Assembly (NCBI RefSeq): GCF_001766235.1
Contig: NZ_CP015164.1
Location: 248,001-312,000 of the forward strand
DNA from: Acetobacter ascendens
Lineage (GTDB): Bacteria; Pseudomonadota; Alphaproteobacteria; Acetobacterales; Acetobacteraceae
Reading direction: 5' to 3'
DNA length: 64,000 nucleotides
The position numbers and the translations under genes are program-made. Below are positions 36,375-51,517 of this stretch, one piece after another; the stretch's first letter is position 1; every line of letters starts with the position of its first letter. A model generated the notes under the pieces. It was not told where the DNA came from. It did no database searches and was given only the letters and a program-made list of their open reading frames with translations.

Positions 36375-36446
36375 AAAACGCTGTGCGGAAATGTGCCTGT
36401 AAGCAGGACGTGGCAGCGCGAATCTGATACAAGCGGTGTTGTGAGC

Positions 36447-37949
36447 ATGACAACAACAGATACCCCCAACCAGAAGGACGAAAGCCTTCTGGCCCTTACC
36501 CTTCGGCAGCCCCCAGCCAATGTGGAGGCCGAACAGGCGCTGCTTGGCGCGTTGCTGACCAACAACCGCGCCTATGATCGTGTTTCGGACTTTTTGGCCG
36601 GTGAGCATTTTGCCAACCGTGTAAATGGCCAGATTTATGAAGCCATTGCCCGGCGCATAGAAAACGGCCAGTTGGCAGACCCCGTAACCATGCGGGCCGA
36701 GCTGGAACATTCCGGCATTTTGGCGAGTGTTGGCGGCATGGCCTATATGGCCAAGCTGCTGTCCTCCATGGTCGGGATTATCAACGCTGGGGATTACGGA
36801 CGCACCATTCATGATGCGTGGATCCGCCGCCAGCTAATTGATATTGGTGAAAACGTGGTGAACAGCGCGTTTGGCACCACCATGGGCCTTTCCGGGCAGG
36901 ACCAGATTGAAGCAGGGGAAGAAGCCCTGTTCAAACTGGCGACGGAAAAAGGCAATGAAGGGGATTTTGTTTCCTTCAATAAGGCGCTGAGCGGGGCCAT
37001 TTCTGTTGCGGCCCAAGCCTTCCAGAACGAAGGGCACGTTACGGGCCTGACATCCGGCCTGCGTGATCTGGATAAAAAAACAGGTGGGCTGCATCCGTCG
37101 GACTTGCTGATTCTGGCGGGGCGTCCGGCTATGGGTAAAACGGCGCTGGCCACCAAAATGGCTTTTTCCGCCGCCCGCGCCATTATGGATGAGGCCGAGG
37201 AAACGGGAGAAAAGCCCAAAGGGGCTGTGGCTATTTTCTCGCTCGAAATGTCGGCAGAACAGTTGGCCACACGTATTCTGTCTGAACAGGCAGAGGTTTC
37301 GGGCGAGCGTATCCGCCGTGGTGATATTGGGCAGAAGGAGTTTGACCGCTTTGTGCGTGTCAGCCACGAACTGGCCCGCCTGCCATTGGTGATTGATGAT
37401 ACGCCAGCTATTTCCCTTTCCGCCATGCGCACACGCTGCCGTAGGTTAAAGCGTACGCAGGGCCTATGCCTTGTGGTGGTGGATTACCTCCAGCTTATGC
37501 GGCCATCTGTTGGCACCCGCCCAGAAAGCCGCGTGTTGGAAATTTCCATGATTACGCAGGGCCTTAAAGCCATTGCCAAGGAATTGGAAGTGCCCGTTAT
37601 TGCGCTTTCCCAGCTTTCCCGTCAGGTGGAAAGCCGAGAAGACAAGCGGCCTATGCTATCGGATTTGCGTGAATCTGGCTCCATTGAGCAGGACGCCGAT
37701 GCGGTGATGTTTGTGTACCGTGATGAATATTACCTGCAACAGCGTATGCCCAAGGAAACAGCTTTTGAATCCATGGAGAAATACTCTATGGCGATGGATG
37801 AATGGCAGCGCAAGATGAGCCTGGTGCATAATAAGGCCGAGCTTATTTTGGAAAAGCAGCGTCATGGCCCCACGGGCACTATCAATCTGTTTTTCGAAGG
37901 CGAATACACACGCTTTGCAGATTTGGATACCATTCATCAGGATCAGTAA
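36447..37949 (+). CDS. dnaB: Replicative DNA helicase
   Basis: DnaB is the hexameric 5'-3' helicase that unwinds the fork and binds primase. The 500-residue product has the N-terminal helical domain (PPANVEAEQALLGALLTNNRAYDRVSDFL) and a RecA-like motor. The motor carries Walker A GRPAMGKTALA near residue 227, VVVDYLQLM (Walker B), and the DLRESGSIEQDADAVMFVYRDE segment. ATG 36447 gives the normal length. No intein is present. A strong terminator follows. Confidence 0.96.
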   Translation: MTTTDTPNQKDESLLALTLRQPPANVEAEQALLGALLTNNRAYDRVSDFLAGEHFANRVNGQIYEAIARRIENGQLADPVTMRAELEHSGILASVGGMAYMAKLLSSMVGIINAGDYGRTIHDAWIRRQLIDIGENVVNSAFGTTMGLSGQDQIEAGEEALFKLATEKGNEGDFVSFNKALSGAISVAAQAFQNEGHVTGLTSGLRDLDKKTGGLHPSDLLILAGRPAMGKTALATKMAFSAARAIMDEAEETGEKPKGAVAIFSLEMSAEQLATRILSEQAEVSGERIRRGDIGQKEFDRFVRVSHELARLPLVIDDTPAISLSAMRTRCRRLKRTQGLCLVVVDYLQLMRPSVGTRPESRVLEISMITQGLKAIAKELEVPVIALSQLSRQVESREDKRPMLSDLRESGSIEQDADAVMFVYRDEYYLQQRMPKETAFESMEKYSMAMDEWQRKMSLVHNKAELILEKQRHGPTGTINLFFEGEYTRFADLDTIHQDQ

Positions 37950-37956
37950 ACCTGTT

Positions 37957-37988
37957 AAAAAGGCCCCACATGTTGGGGCCTTTTTTTT
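37957..37988 (+). terminator. Rho-independent terminator after dnaB
   Basis: GGCCCCA pairs with TGGGGCC around a short loop, followed directly by eight T's at 37981-37988 and preceded by A's. It ends the gmk-hldE-AGE-dnaB transcript. Confidence 0.92.
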
Positions 37989-38302
37989 GGTAAAAACCAT
38001 CTGATATCCACGCAAATTTGAAAAGTGGTGCAGCTTGCCGTAAGGCGCTGTATGTGCCACTGCATGTACGTGCAAGAACAGCCTGTAAGCTGAATGCCAA
38101 AAAACAATAAGATCGGGCAGATTTTTTAATGAATAAACTTGGTGCCATTATTGCAGTGGCAGTGTGCGTTCTTGTCTTGCTGAATATTTCAACTGTTTTT
38201 GCGTTCTTGTTCCTGCTTCTAAAAATTGCTTTGGTTGTTGGGCTTCTTGCTCTGGCAGGGTTTCTGGTTTTTGGTTTTATTGAAAAACCAGAAACGCGCT
38301 TA

Positions 38303-39207
38303 GAGCCCTTTTGGAAATTCACGGATGAGCGTTTCGGCGTAGCATGAGGCTTCCCATGGCGATGTGGATCATGGCCTCTGCGACGTCGATCCGCTGTTCG
38401 TAGTCCTTCACAAGGCGACGCCAGCGGATCATCCAACCGAAGGTCCGTTCCACAACCCACCGACGCGGCAGGATTTCAAACCCTTTTGCTGTCTCTGACC
38501 GCCGGATGATCTCGACTGTGAAGTCGAGAAAAGTGGCCTTATCCATCAACTGGAGGCGGTCATAGGCTCCATCGGCAAACAGGTGCTTCACCCAAAGCCA
38601 GCGTTTACGAATGGCATCAAGGATCATCTGTCCTCCTGCACTGTCCGAAATATCGGCTGTTGTCAGCTGGACCAGGAGAAGGCGGCCATCCGTATCAACT
38701 GCGATGTGACGTTTCCGACCGACGATCTTCTTGCCTGCGTCATAACCACGTGTCTTTGCGTGGGGTGCCTTGATACTCTGGCTATCAATGACACCACCCG
38801 ATGGACTGGTTTCGCGTCCTGTCGCTTCACGATCGAGCATCAGACAGACATCATGAATGGTCTGGAACAGGAAACGGCGCATCAGCCTGCGGAACCACCA
38901 GTAAACCGTTTGACATGGGCCAAAATGAACCGGAAGCATCTCCCAACCGCAGCCTGAGCGCACGAGATAGCGCAGAGCATTGATGATCTCACGGAAATCG
39001 GTTGTCCGTTTCCGACCACGCCGGTTCGCAGGGGGCATCAGAGGCGCTATGCGCTCCCATTCCTCATCTGTCAGATCAGACGGATAGCGTTTCGTCTTGC
39101 GTGTAATTCCGGCCATGCGACCTCGTTGTGCTGGCGTCCACATCCTGCCTTTGAATCACGCTCAAAACCTCTTGAAAACCTATCATAGCGAATTTCCAAA
39201 AGGGCTC
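38303..39207 (-). mobile_element. IS5-family (IS1031-like) insertion sequence, copy 1
   Basis: This 905 bp element has perfect terminal inverted repeats, GAGCCCTTTTGGAAATTC at 38303-38320 against its complement at 39190-39207. It is flanked by a 3 bp TTA target duplication (38300-38302 and 39208-39210). It carries one transposase gene on the reverse strand and is inserted in codon 58 of the NERD gene. A second copy of identical length lies at 50613-51517 in the other orientation. Confidence 0.93.
38319..39143 (-). CDS. IS5-family transposase, copy 1
   Basis: The 274-residue DDE transposase fills the element. The N-terminal region has YPSDLTDEEWERIAPLMPP. The catalytic residues are probably the D in GGVIDSQSIKAPH, the D in LFADGAYDRL, and the E in VVERTFGWMIRWRR. 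It differs from the second copy in two residues (FGPC for FGPW, WLWV for WPWV). The first of these replaces a tryptophan, which might weaken this copy. Confidence 0.93.
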   Translation of the reverse strand: MWTPAQRGRMAGITRKTKRYPSDLTDEEWERIAPLMPPANRRGRKRTTDFREIINALRYLVRSGCGWEMLPVHFGPCQTVYWWFRRLMRRFLFQTIHDVCLMLDREATGRETSPSGGVIDSQSIKAPHAKTRGYDAGKKIVGRKRHIAVDTDGRLLLVQLTTADISDSAGGQMILDAIRKRWLWVKHLFADGAYDRLQLMDKATFLDFTVEIIRRSETAKGFEILPRRWVVERTFGWMIRWRRLVKDYEQRIDVAEAMIHIAMGSLMLRRNAHP

Positions 39208-39369
39208 TTACCTCCGGCCCCAACACCTAAGGGGGAAGCCCCCACAGAGCCGGTTTTTGAGAAACCGTATTTTGATGCTCATGAAAAGGGGCGGGAAGGG
39301 GAAGAAAAAGTAAGCGCAATTCTCCAGCATATGGGCTGGCCAGCCTTGCATAATGTTATTCTGGAAGAT

Positions 39370-40659
39370 GGAGGGTTCGAAGAACCGTTGATTGATTTCC
39401 CTTCTGCCTGATTTCAGGTTTTTAGCGAGTTGATTGCTGGTTCGTGGACCTGATTTTCACTCTGCGTATTGAGCAGAGAGAGGGTCTCATGCCCTGAATT
39501 GCTACGCGCTCGCGTTAATCCGCTCCAGGAGGAGAAAGCGGCGCATATTATAGACGATATTGGCCAGCCCGATCCTCATGGTGGCTCGGGTTATCCCTAC
39601 GGTTCGTATGAACAGTCCTGTCTGCGATTTCTGATCGGCAAAAACATGCTCGACACGCGACCGAATAACGGACTTTCCGGCGTTGGATCTCTGGATATGT
39701 CGTGGCATCGGCTTGAGATGAGGCTTTTTCCTGTGAACCTTCGAGACAAAGCCATGCTTGTCCATGAAGTCCTCATTGGCTTTTGAGCGGTAGGCTGTAT
39801 CCGCCCAGACTGTTGATGCCATATTGGTTTTATCCAGCAGGCCCTCGCGTAGTCTGGCACCATCGCTGGCCGCTGCATCGGTCGCTTTCCATTTGCGGAT
39901 CAGCCGAAATTTCCGGTCGATGGAAACATGCGATTTATAGCCAAAGAAAGGGATGGCCAGATCTGTTGCGGGCATACTCCCGTCATCCTGACGCTTTGCT
40001 TTCGTGAACTTCAATGTCCATCGGGCATGACGATCTTTATGGGACAGCTTTGAGGGCTTGTCCTGCCAATCCTGCGGGATCCGTCCTTCGCGCAGATCGG
40101 CCTTCTCTTCATTGGTATTGCGCTGCTTTGGGGCCGCTACCAGTGTAGCATCCAGGATCTGACCTGACATGGGGAGATAACCGGCATTCCGCAGGGTCGC
40201 ATCAAAGCGGTTGAACAAAACATCAATTGCTCCCGCCTGTGTCAGACGCTCACGAAACAGCCAGACGGTCTTGGCATCAGGCACGCGGTCAGACAGCCCC
40301 AGACCAAGAAAGCGCATGAAGGACAGGCGGTCGTTGATCAGGTATTCCGTCCGTTCGTCGGACAAATTGTTCAGCGTCTGGATGACCAGAATTTTGAACA
40401 TTAGCACTGGATCAAACGGAGGACGCCCGCCTTTGCTTCTGTCTGAATAGGCCAACGCCTTGTTCAGCTCCGGACGGAATACCTCAAAATCCACAGTCTG
40501 GGAAAATGCTTCAAGTTGGTCACCAAGCCCACTCAACCGAGCAAGCCGCTCTTCAACATCAAAGAAACCAGACTGCGTCATCAGCCACTCCTCCAGTCAT
40601 CACACAAGAGAGGGAATCACACAGAGAGACCTAAAACCAGAGGGTTTTTCGAACCCTCC
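39370..40659 (-). mobile_element. IS5-family insertion sequence of a second type
   Basis: This 1290 bp element has terminal repeats that begin GGAGGGTTCGAA at both ends, with 16 of 17 bases matching when extended. It is flanked by a 4 bp AGAT duplication (39366-39369 and 40660-40663). It has a single transposase gene on the reverse strand and is unrelated in its ends to the 905 bp element. It interrupts the NERD gene after residue 111 of the reconstructed protein. Confidence 0.92.
39502..40581 (-). CDS. IS5-group transposase
   Basis: The 359-residue DDE transposase has the N-terminal SKGGRPPFDPVLMFKILVIQ, the catalytic D in ILDATLVAAPKQRN, the second D in TVWADTAYRSKANED, and the E in SRVEHVFADQK. 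It ends with NIVYNMRRFLLLE. The pattern is that of the IS5 group. The gene looks intact, so the element may be active. Confidence 0.93.
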   Translation of the reverse strand: MTQSGFFDVEERLARLSGLGDQLEAFSQTVDFEVFRPELNKALAYSDRSKGGRPPFDPVLMFKILVIQTLNNLSDERTEYLINDRLSFMRFLGLGLSDRVPDAKTVWLFRERLTQAGAIDVLFNRFDATLRNAGYLPMSGQILDATLVAAPKQRNTNEEKADLREGRIPQDWQDKPSKLSHKDRHARWTLKFTKAKRQDDGSMPATDLAIPFFGYKSHVSIDRKFRLIRKWKATDAAASDGARLREGLLDKTNMASTVWADTAYRSKANEDFMDKHGFVSKVHRKKPHLKPMPRHIQRSNAGKSVIRSRVEHVFADQKSQTGLFIRTVGITRATMRIGLANIVYNMRRFLLLERINASA

Positions 40660-41136
40660 AGATGATAGAGGGCTGACAGAAATAGATCATCTTGTAAAAG
40701 CCCCGTGGGGCATTGTGGTTATTGAAACCAAAAATTACGATGGCTTTATTTCTGGTTCATCTACGCCGGGTGTTTGGAAACAGAGTTTTCCAAATTCTTC
40801 CGGGGTAAGCTACCGGCTGTTTATGGACCCCGTGCATCAGAACTATCGGCATGTTTGTGCTGTAAAATATTTGACCGAGATGGAAAACGTGCAATCTGTA
40901 GTGGTGTTTGCCGGGCGTGCCTATGCCAGCCCGTTTGTGCATCATCAGGTGGTGCGGCTGAAAAATCTGGAGCGCGTTTTACGTAAGCGGCCAGAAAGTT
41001 TTGCCCATGTTGATAAGCGCGAATTAGAAAAGGCATGGTACATTCTGCAACAGGCGTATATTGCCAATGCTGGGCGTGCGCGTGAACATATAGATGAATT
41101 GCGCCAGCGTTTTTCCTAAAAAAGAGCGGGGCCGGG

Positions 41137-41168
41137 TTTCTGCGGGCCATACAGGTAGCCCGCAGAAA
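41137..41168. terminator. Strong stem between convergent genes
   Basis: TTTCTGCGGGC at 41137-41147 pairs perfectly with GCCCGCAGAAA at 41158-41168. It lies between the NERD gene end and the convergent channel gene and probably ends transcription from both. The T-run on either side is poor. Confidence 0.6.
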
Positions 41169-41182
41169 TTAAAGTGTGTTGG

Positions 41183-43600
41183 TTAAACGGTTATCAGGTT
41201 TTGCCGCACCGTAACCGGTATTTTGTTTTCCTGAAACGCCTTCCAGATTTCAAAAAGTGCGGCACTACGCACGGCTGTAAGGTCCGTGCCACTTACGGCC
41301 TTGGCAGATCCAATCAGCAGGGCAGAGCCATCAGATACGGAAGACATGCTGACACTTGGCTGCACGGTTGCATCCACATCCTTACAGGCGGCAAGGGTGC
41401 GCGCCATAACATCCATGGCTTTATCCAGATCAGATGCAAAAGGTAGATTGAGTTCTATGGTGAACACACCGGGCTTTTGTGCCCGTGTAGCATTTTTGAC
41501 AGCCGAGGTAATGAACTGCGAGTTGGGGACAATCATGGTGGATTTATCATCTAGCCGGATATCGGTAGAGCGCACGCTAATGCGTTCTACCGTGCCGGTA
41601 ACACCTGCAATGGTCACAACATCCCCAATGGAAACCGGGCGTTCAGCCATAAGAATAATGCCAGAAACAAAGTTTTGCACAATGGATTGCAAGCCAAAGC
41701 CAATACCCACAGAAAGCGCGCTAACAACCCATGTCATGCTTTTAACGGTAACGCCTAGCACCGCCAGCATGCTTAGCCCCACCAAAATCCAAGCCGCATA
41801 GCTTAGAATACTCAGGATGGAGGCCTGCGCCCCGATATCTAACCGCGTGGTGGGGAAAAACCTTTGCTTGAACCAAGATTTTAAAATGCTGATGGTGTAA
41901 TAGCCCGCAACCGGCAACACGGCGCACAGCAAAATGGCATCCAGAGAGATATGGGAGCCATCGGTACTGGCTTGGCCATGAAACAACCAGTAAAGCTGGT
42001 GCCAGATTTGCTGCGGGTCAAACCCATCGCCACTGGTGGCAACAGCATAAGCTACGGCCAGCAGCAGCACATTTACAATACCGGGTACCACCACACACAT
42101 CTGGTTTACAAGCCGCGGGGGCAGCCCCAGCTCAACCAGATGCCGCCCCAAAGGCGCACTGGCCGGGAAAAGCGTGCTGGCCATAACCGTAACCAAAAGG
42201 GAAAGCAGCAAAAGGCCAGTCATGCTAATGGCCATCATGCTCAACCATGAGATGATGGTGTAAGCCAGCGGAATATAGCCTGAAAAAACAGCCAGCCAGC
42301 AGACAATGGAAATTCCCATAGCCAGACTGATTAAAAACTGTGTGCGCGAGGGTTGGCTGGGTGTGTTTTCTGCTTGGTCGGAAATGCGCAATTCCTGCGG
42401 GATAACAAACAGCAAAGGGCTTACCGCCAGCACATACAGGCCATCCATAAACTGTACGGACAGCATGGAAATGCCGCTTTGCGTATCAATATAACGCAGG
42501 AACCCACGCATAATAAGCGCTGCCGCCAACCAGAGCGGAAACAGCCGTAAATTGCGCGCAATGGTGTCCGACATCGGAAAGATACGCCATTCTGGATGGC
42601 GTGAAAGCAGGCAAAACCCCAACTCAATAACAAGCCCGCAAAGTGGAAACTGCGCGCCCATCATGCTGCCAAGGGTGGTTAAATCTTCATCCAGCGCAGA
42701 GTTATCAAAGGCCAGAACGCTCCACAAAATCTGGAAGGAAAAGCCCCATGCCAACAGGCTAAGCACACCACAAATAAGAGTTGCGATAATGGGGCGGATA
42801 CGTCCTGCAGGTAAAATACGCACCACCACCCGGCGAATAATGCCGTGTGAGAAAAACCACCCCACCAAAAGCAAGGCGGAAAGTGCTAGACCGCCGAGCG
42901 AAATAAAGATGCGCTTGCCAGCAAAAGCTACGCCCAGCACCCCAAGGGCTTCTCCCCCCAAAGCGCTGAGCCGTGTGGTGTCTGCACGGAAATTGCTGGT
43001 AAACTGAGACCAGAAATTAACACCCAGAGGTGAGGGAAAACGCTGCCACAAGGTAGCCTGCTGTATGGCGGTGCCATGCTGGCGCAGTTCATTAACAAGC
43101 TGCTGGGCTTCTACCTGATACAGCTTAAGCCGCGTCATGCGGGAATTGATATCCTGCTGTTTGGTCAGCAGGAGTTTGCGCTGCTCGGTAATGGAGGCCG
43201 CTTCTGCCGGTTCATCTTTGCCCGGCGGCTTGCCCAGAATATCTAAAAAGTTTTGATAAACCGCTTGGTAGGGTTTTAGGCGGGCTTGCAGGGTATCTGT
43301 TTGTGTAGCTACAGCATTGGCGCGGCGCAGCAAGGTGGCCAGTTCTGTTGTGCTTTGGGCGTTGCTTCTTTCTTGCTGACTGCTTTGGTAAATGGCGCTT
43401 ATTTCTGTGCCAATACTTTCCAGCGTGCTGTTACTGACAATATCAGCAGTATTGGTAATAAGGGTTGTTGGGGCCGGTTCCGTAACCTGTGTGTTTTCTG
43501 TGGTGGCTGCCAAAAGGGGGGAGCTGGTTGCAAAAAACAGGGCACCCTGCGTAAGCACAAAGCACGATAGAAAAAGAGAACAGAACCGCTTCAAACGCAT
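41183..43600 (-). CDS. DUF3772 / MscS-family mechanosensitive channel
   Basis: This large mechanosensitive channel of the inner membrane has 805 residues from ATG 43600. There is a signal peptide (MRLKRFCSLFLSCFVLTQGALFF...), then a periplasmic coiled-coil-like region to about 230 (many Q, T and R residues, DUF3772). About ten membrane helices follow, with the MscS core at the end. The core shows VVSALSVGIGFGLQSIVQNFVSGIILMAERPVSIGDVVTI and VPNSQFITSAVKN. Related proteins protect cells from osmotic downshock. An upstream in-frame start at 43681 adds a non-signal sequence and is less likely. Confidence 0.9.
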   Translation of the reverse strand: MRLKRFCSLFLSCFVLTQGALFFATSSPLLAATTENTQVTEPAPTTLITNTADIVSNSTLESIGTEISAIYQSSQQERSNAQSTTELATLLRRANAVATQTDTLQARLKPYQAVYQNFLDILGKPPGKDEPAEAASITEQRKLLLTKQQDINSRMTRLKLYQVEAQQLVNELRQHGTAIQQATLWQRFPSPLGVNFWSQFTSNFRADTTRLSALGGEALGVLGVAFAGKRIFISLGGLALSALLLVGWFFSHGIIRRVVVRILPAGRIRPIIATLICGVLSLLAWGFSFQILWSVLAFDNSALDEDLTTLGSMMGAQFPLCGLVIELGFCLLSRHPEWRIFPMSDTIARNLRLFPLWLAAALIMRGFLRYIDTQSGISMLSVQFMDGLYVLAVSPLLFVIPQELRISDQAENTPSQPSRTQFLISLAMGISIVCWLAVFSGYIPLAYTIISWLSMMAISMTGLLLLSLLVTVMASTLFPASAPLGRHLVELGLPPRLVNQMCVVVPGIVNVLLLAVAYAVATSGDGFDPQQIWHQLYWLFHGQASTDGSHISLDAILLCAVLPVAGYYTISILKSWFKQRFFPTTRLDIGAQASILSILSYAAWILVGLSMLAVLGVTVKSMTWVVSALSVGIGFGLQSIVQNFVSGIILMAERPVSIGDVVTIAGVTGTVERISVRSTDIRLDDKSTMIVPNSQFITSAVKNATRAQKPGVFTIELNLPFASDLDKAMDVMARTLAACKDVDATVQPSVSMSSVSDGSALLIGSAKAVSGTDLTAVRSAALFEIWKAFQENKIPVTVRQNLITV

Positions 43601-43770
43601 CAGAAAACCTTGTGTTTCAGGTGTCTGGAAAAAATAACACTTATATCCGTAACGTAGCGGCGTAAGAGGGGGTTGCGCCACTATTAAGCCAGCGGCTTAG
43701 TGTTATTGGGCGCGTGCGCAAGTTTCTGTTTTGTGCAGGCGGCGTATACGCTGTGCACATTCAAACAGAT

Positions 43771-50612: not shown

Positions 50613-51517
50613 GAGCCCTTTTGGAAATTCGCTATGATAGGTTTTCAAGAGGTTTTGAGCGTGATTCAAAGGCAGGATGTGGACGCCAGCACAACGAGGC
50701 CGCATGGCCGGAATTACACGCAAGACGAAACGCTATCCGTCTGATCTGACAGATGAGGAATGGGAGCGCATAGCGCCTCTGATGCCCCCTGCGAACCGGC
50801 GTGGTCGGAAACGGACAACCGATTTCCGTGAGATCATCAATGCTCTGCGCTATCTCGTGCGCTCAGGCTGCGGTTGGGAGATGCTTCCGGTTCATTTTGG
50901 CCCATGGCAAACGGTTTACTGGTGGTTCCGCAGGCTGATGCGCCGTTTCCTGTTCCAGACCATTCATGATGTCTGTCTGATGCTCGATCGTGAAGCGACA
51001 GGACGCGAAACCAGTCCATCGGGTGGTGTCATTGATAGCCAGAGTATCAAGGCACCCCACGCAAAGACACGTGGTTATGACGCAGGCAAGAAGATCGTCG
51101 GTCGGAAACGTCACATCGCAGTTGATACGGATGGCCGCCTTCTCCTGGTCCAGCTGACAACAGCCGATATTTCGGACAGTGCAGGAGGACAGATGATCCT
51201 TGATGCCATTCGTAAACGCTGGCCTTGGGTGAAGCACCTGTTTGCCGATGGAGCCTATGACCGCCTCCAGTTGATGGATAAGGCCACTTTTCTCGACTTC
51301 ACAGTCGAGATCATCCGGCGGTCAGAGACAGCAAAAGGGTTTGAAATCCTGCCGCGTCGGTGGGTTGTGGAACGGACCTTCGGTTGGATGATCCGCTGGC
51401 GTCGCCTTGTGAAGGACTACGAACAGCGGATCGACGTCGCAGAGGCCATGATCCACATCGCCATGGGAAGCCTCATGCTACGCCGAAACGCTCATCCGTG
51501 AATTTCCAAAAGGGCTC
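50613..51517 (+). mobile_element. IS5-family (IS1031-like) insertion sequence, copy 2
   Basis: 905 bp, the same ends as copy 1 (GAGCCCTTTTGGAAATTC and its complement), flanked by a TAA duplication (50610-50612 and 51518-51520). The orientation is opposite to copy 1. TAA here and TTA there are complementary, so the target choice is the same. The copy is intact. Confidence 0.93.
50677..51501 (+). CDS. IS5-family transposase, copy 2
   Basis: 274 residues, intact. It differs from copy 1 in two residues, W for C in HFGPWQTVY and P for L in KRWPWVKH. The DDE residues match those of copy 1. An internal start at MAGITRKTKRY is possible. Confidence 0.93.
   Translation: MWTPAQRGRMAGITRKTKRYPSDLTDEEWERIAPLMPPANRRGRKRTTDFREIINALRYLVRSGCGWEMLPVHFGPWQTVYWWFRRLMRRFLFQTIHDVCLMLDREATGRETSPSGGVIDSQSIKAPHAKTRGYDAGKKIVGRKRHIAVDTDGRLLLVQLTTADISDSAGGQMILDAIRKRWPWVKHLFADGAYDRLQLMDKATFLDFTVEIIRRSETAKGFEILPRRWVVERTFGWMIRWRRLVKDYEQRIDVAEAMIHIAMGSLMLRRNAHP

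What the first reader, a model, noticed from the sequence alone, without database searches (positions are those of the whole stretch)
38129..41119. NERD-domain gene knocked out twice by two different insertion sequences
Removing each IS with one copy of its duplication (TTA, AGAT) rejoins three pieces into one clean frame of 262 residues, with two N-terminal membrane helices and a NERD domain. NERD domains are nuclease-related and some are found in phage defence or plasmid contexts. Two independent hits in one 789 bp gene suggest its loss was favoured or that it was free to decay.
Basis: partly seen in the sequence, partly recalled or inferred. Interest (0 to 1): 0.55.

Follow-up and report, generated by a model that had tools for sequence, protein, structure and literature searches.

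The report
Membrane nuclease-like gene broken by transposons
In this vinegar-type bacterium a gene for a membrane-anchored, nuclease-like protein has been cut into three pieces by two ordinary jumping elements; close relatives keep it whole and one has deleted it, so it looks like a dispensable gene recently lost rather than anything extraordinary.

Summary
An IS12528 copy (38303-39207, duplication TTA) and a second IS5-family element (39370-40659, duplication AGAT) split a 789-bp gene between dnaB and a convergent MscS-type channel gene. Read across both junctions it gives 262 residues and 86.6 bits for Pfam NERD (cut-off 22.1). dN/dS is 0.14-0.22; E89, D119, E132 and K134 are kept in 29 of 29 NERD proteins aligned. 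Two hits in one gene do not show that loss was favoured: at least 70 pieces of these two IS groups lie in the genome, another pair sits 166 bp apart, and 0.29 doubly hit genes are expected from 46 full-length copies alone. "Free to be lost" fits better: the gene adjoins dnaB in 7 of 47 genomes of the genus read there (own included), and the near relative G025 deleted it separately, leaving a 3' scar. Function is inferred: a membrane-anchored nuclease acting on DNA near the membrane, possibly an entry barrier. An ordinary pseudogene; low interest.

The parts
38129..38302 (+). Piece 1 of the broken NERD gene: start codon and hydrophobic N-terminal segment (residues 1-58), ending in the TTA duplication
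   Evidence: aligned with intact orthologues; hydropathy
38303..39207 (-). IS12528 (IS5 family), 905 bp, transposase ORF 38319-39143 (-); flanked by TTA
   Evidence: NF033580, 239.1 bits, cut-off 110; 99.4% to a copy annotated IS12528 on a Gluconobacter oxydans 621H plasmid
39208..39210 (.). second copy of the TTA target duplication
39211..39369 (+). Piece 2 of the broken gene: residues 59-111, proline-rich linker and first NERD segment with G85, G88, E89; ends in AGAT
39370..40659 (-). Second IS5-family element, 1290 bp, transposase ORF 39502-40581 (-); flanked by AGAT
   Evidence: NF033581, 208.3 bits, cut-off 140; 100% to an element on Acetobacter ascendens plasmid NZ_CP015169.1
40660..40663 (.). 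second copy of the AGAT target duplication
40664..41119 (+). Piece 3 of the broken gene: residues 112-262 and stop, with D119 and E132-x-K134 of NERD
   Evidence: (67.1 bits on NERD positions 31-110)
36393..37949 (+). dnaB (upstream neighbour; likelier start ATG at 36447)
   Evidence: in G025 the longer frame has a stop at codon 7
37957..37985 (+). 12-bp perfect hairpin running into a T tract: possible dnaB terminator, which would leave the NERD gene transcribed alone
   Evidence: I12. Not listed by the terminator scan; its A and T tracts pair with each other, leaving few T after the stem (my reading of why)
41183..43681 (-). MscS-type mechanosensitive channel gene, convergent downstream neighbour

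Best explanation
Shown: this is a pseudogene. A chromosomal gene for a NERD protein with a hydrophobic N-terminal segment, in the dnaB-MscS interval, was inactivated by two independent insertions of common acetic-acid-bacterial IS5-family elements; the second insertion separates the E89 segment from the D119/ExK core. Inferred: both insertions are fairly recent, since the frame is still free of stops and frameshifts; and, with a possible dnaB terminator before it and a convergent gene after it, insertions there should have little polar cost. Inferred and less sure (about 0.35): the intact protein is held at the inner membrane, with a PD-(D/E)XK-like NERD domain in the cytoplasm that cuts or binds DNA near the membrane, most likely incoming DNA; such conditional usefulness would explain constraint where it is kept and easy loss where it is not needed. 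The confidence below is for the pseudogene reading.
For: Junctions, duplications and open frame; NERD hit of the joined frame; by family search the own genome has one NERD match, the C-terminal piece. Intact orthologues between dnaB and MscS in G026, G028 (the same gene as L092 of Acetobacter pasteurianus LMG 1262) and G031. dN/dS 0.169, 0.167 and 0.192 against them. E89, D119, E132, K134 in 29 of 29 aligned NERD proteins. The second IS is identical to two other copies in the genome, as a recent insertion would be; the IS12528 copy has two private differences in 905 bp among 28 copies, which suggests, no more, that it is the older of the two. Separate deletion in G025 with a 3' scar.
Against: No same-species strain was at hand, so fixation is unknown. 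The window copy shows mild relaxation (23 non-synonymous to 33 synonymous changes on its side, an internal branch included, against 4 to 22 on the G026 and G028 tips, Fisher p 0.024; 3 of 70 otherwise invariant residues changed, against 1 of 71 for the G031 orthologue), so function may have weakened before the insertions. For the functional part: no usable structure (mean pLDDT 45.8), no solved relative below E 0.2, no good defence-model match, and in the distant dnaB-linked orthologues only short hydrophobic stretches (two of these rows were cut at the N-terminus by my coordinates).
Confidence: 0.85

Rival explanations
1. Loss was positively selected (for instance the gene was costly in fermentation conditions), so inactivating insertions were enriched.
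For: Two insertions in one 789-bp gene; independent deletion in the near relative G025.
Against: After the first insertion a second gives no further gain, so a second hit says nothing about selection. IS load makes coincidence ordinary: 70 matched pieces, a lower bound; chance 0.11 of at least one pair within 163 bp among 46 random sites, and another pair at 166 bp observed. The gene was constrained in the lineage for most of its history. Against this argument: 0.11 and 0.29 are not large, and the true number of IS insertions in this genome was not counted.
Confidence: 0.1
2. The protein is a cell-morphology or envelope factor like staphylococcal SmdA (N-terminal membrane helix plus NERD-like part), not a nuclease.
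For: Similar architecture; PMC9040797 (passages; Discussion) describes SmdA with one N-terminal helix, a cytoplasmic NERD-like part and a monocistronic gene.
Against: SmdA is reported as essential in transposon screens and lacking several of the most conserved NERD residues, while here E89/D119/E132/K134 are kept and 30 of 49 genomes of the genus have no match.
Confidence: 0.2
3. A piece still works: the N-terminal segment, or the C-terminal D/ExK piece expressed from within the second IS.
For: A 219-codon TTG-started frame (40460-41119) runs from inside the IS into piece 3.
Against: That piece lacks E89 and the anchor; no promoter-like site in 37900-41250 (0 found against a mean of 2.8 in shuffles, a weak test).
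Confidence: 0.05
4. The insertions are a reversible on/off state in a mixed population.
For: Substrains of A. pasteurianus IFO 3283 are reported to differ by transposon insertions (PMC4686929, passages).
Against: Both insertions would have to leave precisely; the assembly holds no second NERD match.
Confidence: 0.04

Closest known systems
NERD domain, PF08378
   Same: Joined frame scores 86.6 bits over positions 1-110 of 111; conserved G..GE, D, ExK
   Different: Here the gene is broken; the hydrophobic N-terminal segment lies outside the Pfam domain
SmdA of Staphylococcus aureus (PMC9040797)
   Same: N-terminal membrane helix plus NERD-like cytoplasmic part; gene standing alone
   Different: SmdA is reported conserved in its family, essential in transposon screens and without several conserved NERD residues; here patchy, lost, residues kept. 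Sequences were not compared
SNIPE membrane-bound anti-phage nuclease (PMC13190303)
   Same: Works-like model only: nuclease tethered to the inner membrane and facing the cytoplasm (passages)
   Different: [quoted passage not shown] the joined frame has NERD only
NERD parts of PglW (BREX/Pgl) and MAD6 kinases
   Same: Weak matches confined to the NERD stretch (PADLOC PglW 16.7 bits; NCBIfam MAD6 20.2 and PglW 15.3 bits)
   Different: NCBIfam cut-offs are 460 and 990; the protein is 262 aa with no kinase domain found
Gene inactivation by IS12528 in acetic acid bacteria (recalled; papers seen as a listing only)
   Same: Same element; about 270 transposases reported for A. pasteurianus IFO 3283 substrains, though only 49 for 386B and no more than 80 for CICC 20001 (PMC4686929, passages)
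   Different: Only the target gene is new to me

Membership tests
NERD (PF08378) | Pfam gathering score 22.1 | tested here: met
   86.6 bits joined; 67.1 bits for the C-terminal piece alone
NERD (PF08378) | PD-(D/E)XK-like residues E, D, ExK (motif recalled) | tested here: met
   E89, D119, E132, K134 in 29 of 29 aligned proteins; 11 further hit loci (fragments, duplicates, some distant ones) were not put into that alignment
NERD (PF08378) | nuclease fold | tested here: inconclusive
   single-sequence model pLDDT 45.8, no fold search made; no solved relative below E 0.2 by sequence
NERD (PF08378) | nuclease activity | not testable with these tools
   needs an assay
IS12528 / IS5 family | transposase family, 905-bp length, TTA or TAA duplication | tested here: met
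   8 of 28 full-length copies have unlike flanks
IS5 family, second element | IS5 transposase model over cut-off; terminal repeats; 4-bp duplication | tested here: met
   NF033581 208.3 bits, cut-off 140. It also matches IS1182 model at 134 bits, under its cut-off 270
Known anti-phage system | match to a PADLOC or NCBIfam defence model at its level | tested here: not met
   only weak local PglW and MAD6 matches for intact orthologues; the joined window protein itself was not scanned there
SNIPE | DUF4041 plus GIY-YIG nuclease | tested here: not met
   Pfam scan at E up to 1 shows NERD only
SmdA | sequence relationship to staphylococcal SmdA | not tested
   SmdA sequence not fetched; architecture compared from the paper

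The most novel reading that the evidence does not exclude
A dnaB-linked, membrane-anchored NERD protein is an undescribed single-gene barrier of Acetobacter against incoming DNA, and its repeated loss (two insertions in one lineage, deletion in a near relative) opened those genomes to mobile elements.
Probability: 0.1. Interest if true: 0.5.

Novelty: new member of a known kind. Interest (0 to 1): 0.17.

Why it matters
As a pseudogene it is one more case of IS-driven gene loss in acetic acid bacteria. Its use is that it points to an intact, constrained NERD gene with a hydrophobic N-terminus in A. pasteurianus and relatives, where a domain with little tested bacterial function (so PMC9040797) could be studied in a food bacterium with natural null lineages.

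Tried and rejected
Favoured loss from the double hit: rejected as evidence after counting IS copies, close pairs and chance. Ancestral absence in G025: rejected, since a 3' remnant of the gene is left and G026, G028 and G031 have the gene. Phage-borne origin: the viral-contig scan with the alignment (two peptide patterns) gave 18 pattern matches, none a relative. Plasmid origin: 121 plasmid records hold a match, all under 60% identity and none covering 80% of the query; the tree sets the dnaB-linked proteins with a few others (0.993) apart from a group that includes L028, which lies on a contig of the same length as plasmid NZ_CP042809.1; nodes joining the two dnaB-linked groups are weak (0.476, 0.277, 0.000), so whether they share one ancestor at this site is open. 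Structure: the single-sequence model was too poor for a fold search, and none was made. A dN/dS table had wrong dnaB values for G025 because a stop shifted the codons; distances and trees were redone. Residue E87, first thought catalytic, is not conserved outside the close group; E89 is. Stretch L158 was fetched but not analysed. The passage on a NERD gene in Acidithiobacillus plasmids (PMC10322971) did not help.

Full report
Observation. The interval 38129-41119 holds three pieces of one gene and two insertion sequences, exactly as described. IS 1 (38303-39207) has perfect 18-bp ends and a TTA duplication; IS 2 (39370-40659) has near-perfect ends (one mismatch in 17 bp) and an AGAT duplication. 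Without each IS and one duplication copy the pieces (174, 159, 456 nt) form a 789-nt frame of 262 codons and a stop. Pfam finds one family at E up to 1, NERD, 86.6 bits. In the genome 20 of 28 full-length copies of IS 1 have matching TTA or TAA duplications and 13 of 16 full-length copies of the IS 2 group have matching ANNT ones, so the junction reading is sound.

The elements. IS 1 is IS12528: 99.4% to a copy annotated so on a Gluconobacter oxydans 621H plasmid. IS 2 is another IS5-family element (NF033581), 100% identical to one on an Acetobacter ascendens plasmid. IS 1 has 40 matches in the genome, 28 of them full length at 99% or more; only 40 of 63 candidates were scored, so this is a lower bound. 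IS 2 has 30 matches (40 of 42 candidates scored), 6 at about 100% and the rest 76-83% apart from one short 96% piece. The window IS12528 copy has three differences from the consensus of the 28, two of them private.

Orthologues. Of 49 genomes of the genus, the own one included, 19 have any match of the joined protein at E up to 0.001. Intact close orthologues lie between dnaB and the MscS gene in G026 (89%), G028 (88%; the same gene in the named record L092 of A. pasteurianus LMG 1262) and G031 (79%). More distant ones adjoin dnaB in G034, G005 and G040, without the MscS gene in the stretches read. The downstream side of dnaB was read in 47 of 49 genomes, in part over only about 1.5 kb; 7 of 47 have the gene there, this broken one included. 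G038 and G039 were not read but have no match anywhere. One weak match in G020 (24.5%, E 0.014) and one in G010 (E 0.51, upstream side) were not counted. Of 150 genomes drawn from the family, own included, 11 match the alignment at E up to 1e-12.

Loss in a near relative. G025 lacks the gene: about 0.8 kb is missing between a point upstream of the start and the last dozen codons, which remain. With G012 and G014 as outgroup, dnaB (0.943), MscS (0.796) and the concatenation (0.999) set G000 and G025 against the rest, with G026 and G028 together and G031 nearest the outgroup. Plain distances do not all agree: G000 is nearer to G028 than to G025 in dnaB (0.0402 against 0.0469) and in the gene upstream of dnaB (0.0852 against 0.1049), so G025 is a probable rather than certain sister. 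Either way two lineages lost the gene by different events while three relatives keep it.

Selection. dN/dS is 0.169, 0.167 and 0.192 for the joined frame against the three orthologues and 0.139 to 0.216 among these; for the MscS end it is 0.05-0.13 and for the gene upstream of dnaB 0.10-0.16. On the window side 23 non-synonymous and 33 synonymous changes stand against 4 and 22 on the G026 and G028 tips (Fisher p 0.024); this side includes an internal branch. Three of 70 otherwise invariant residues differ in the window copy; leave-one-out gives 0 of 70, 0 of 70 and 1 of 71 for the orthologues, the first two being near relatives of each other. The gene was constrained for most of its history and is at most mildly decayed.

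Do two hits mean selected loss? Not by themselves. A uniform model (genes of 950 bp, 88% coding) expects 0.29 genes hit twice for 46 insertions, 1.36 for 100 and 3.04 for 150. Among 46 random sites the chance of at least one pair within 163 bp is 0.11. Seven neighbouring pairs of pieces lie within 1 kb, among them a second IS12528/second-IS pair 166 bp apart and some that are fragments of one element; 28 of 70 pieces crowd in 0.95-1.30 Mb. Of copies with matching duplications, 8 of 20 IS12528 and 6 of 13 of the second group (this one included) lie in joined open frames of 200 codons or more, a loose measure. Once the first hit had inactivated the gene, a second was free. Related strains are reported with about 270 transposases in IFO 3283 substrains, but 49 in 386B and no more than 80 in CICC 20001 (PMC4686929, passages); the total in this genome was not counted.

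What the protein may do. Residues 1-54 are strongly hydrophobic, then a proline-rich linker, then NERD with E89, D119, E132, K134 kept in 29 of 29 proteins; that these are the PD-(D/E)XK residues is recalled. Membrane anchoring resembles SmdA (PMC9040797, passages and Discussion) and, as a working model only, SNIPE (PMC13190303, passages). PMC10952713 lists NERD in Mokosh type I and Nhi-like systems (one passage). Intact orthologues give only weak local PglW and MAD6 matches in PADLOC (3 of 4 proteins) and NCBIfam (one protein). A membrane-tethered nuclease acting on incoming DNA is the reading I favour, at about 0.35; an SmdA-like role at 0.2.

Print. Searches for NERD terms (listing), for Acetobacter with NERD terms and for IS12528 with Acetobacter showed in their listings no paper on this gene; none of the five papers holds the word Acetobacter. 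Most subscription papers are not held.

Noticed in passing
window 50613-51517: A second IS12528 copy (G000:C1:298613-299517) with matching TAA duplication and no frame found across its empty site.
   Followed up: partly
window 36393-36447: The listed GTG start of dnaB is probably too early: in G025 the extended frame has a stop at codon 7, so ATG at 36447 is the likelier start.
   Followed up: partly
L033, L036, L039, L044, L046, L049, L050, L051: 8 of 28 full-length IS12528 copies have unlike flanking triplets, as recombination between copies would leave.
   Followed up: no
G000:C1:950000-1300000 (outside the window): 28 of 70 listed pieces of the two IS groups crowd into this stretch, including IS12528 pieces abutting second-group pieces.
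   Followed up: no
L010 and L027 (G017:C15): A NERD homologue on another contig than dnaB matches in two separate frames, possibly another broken copy or a sequencing error.
   Followed up: no
hits H5-H30: More distant NERD proteins occur on Acetobacter, Komagataeibacter and Gluconobacter plasmids (18, 8 and 4 of 121 records with a match).
   Followed up: partly
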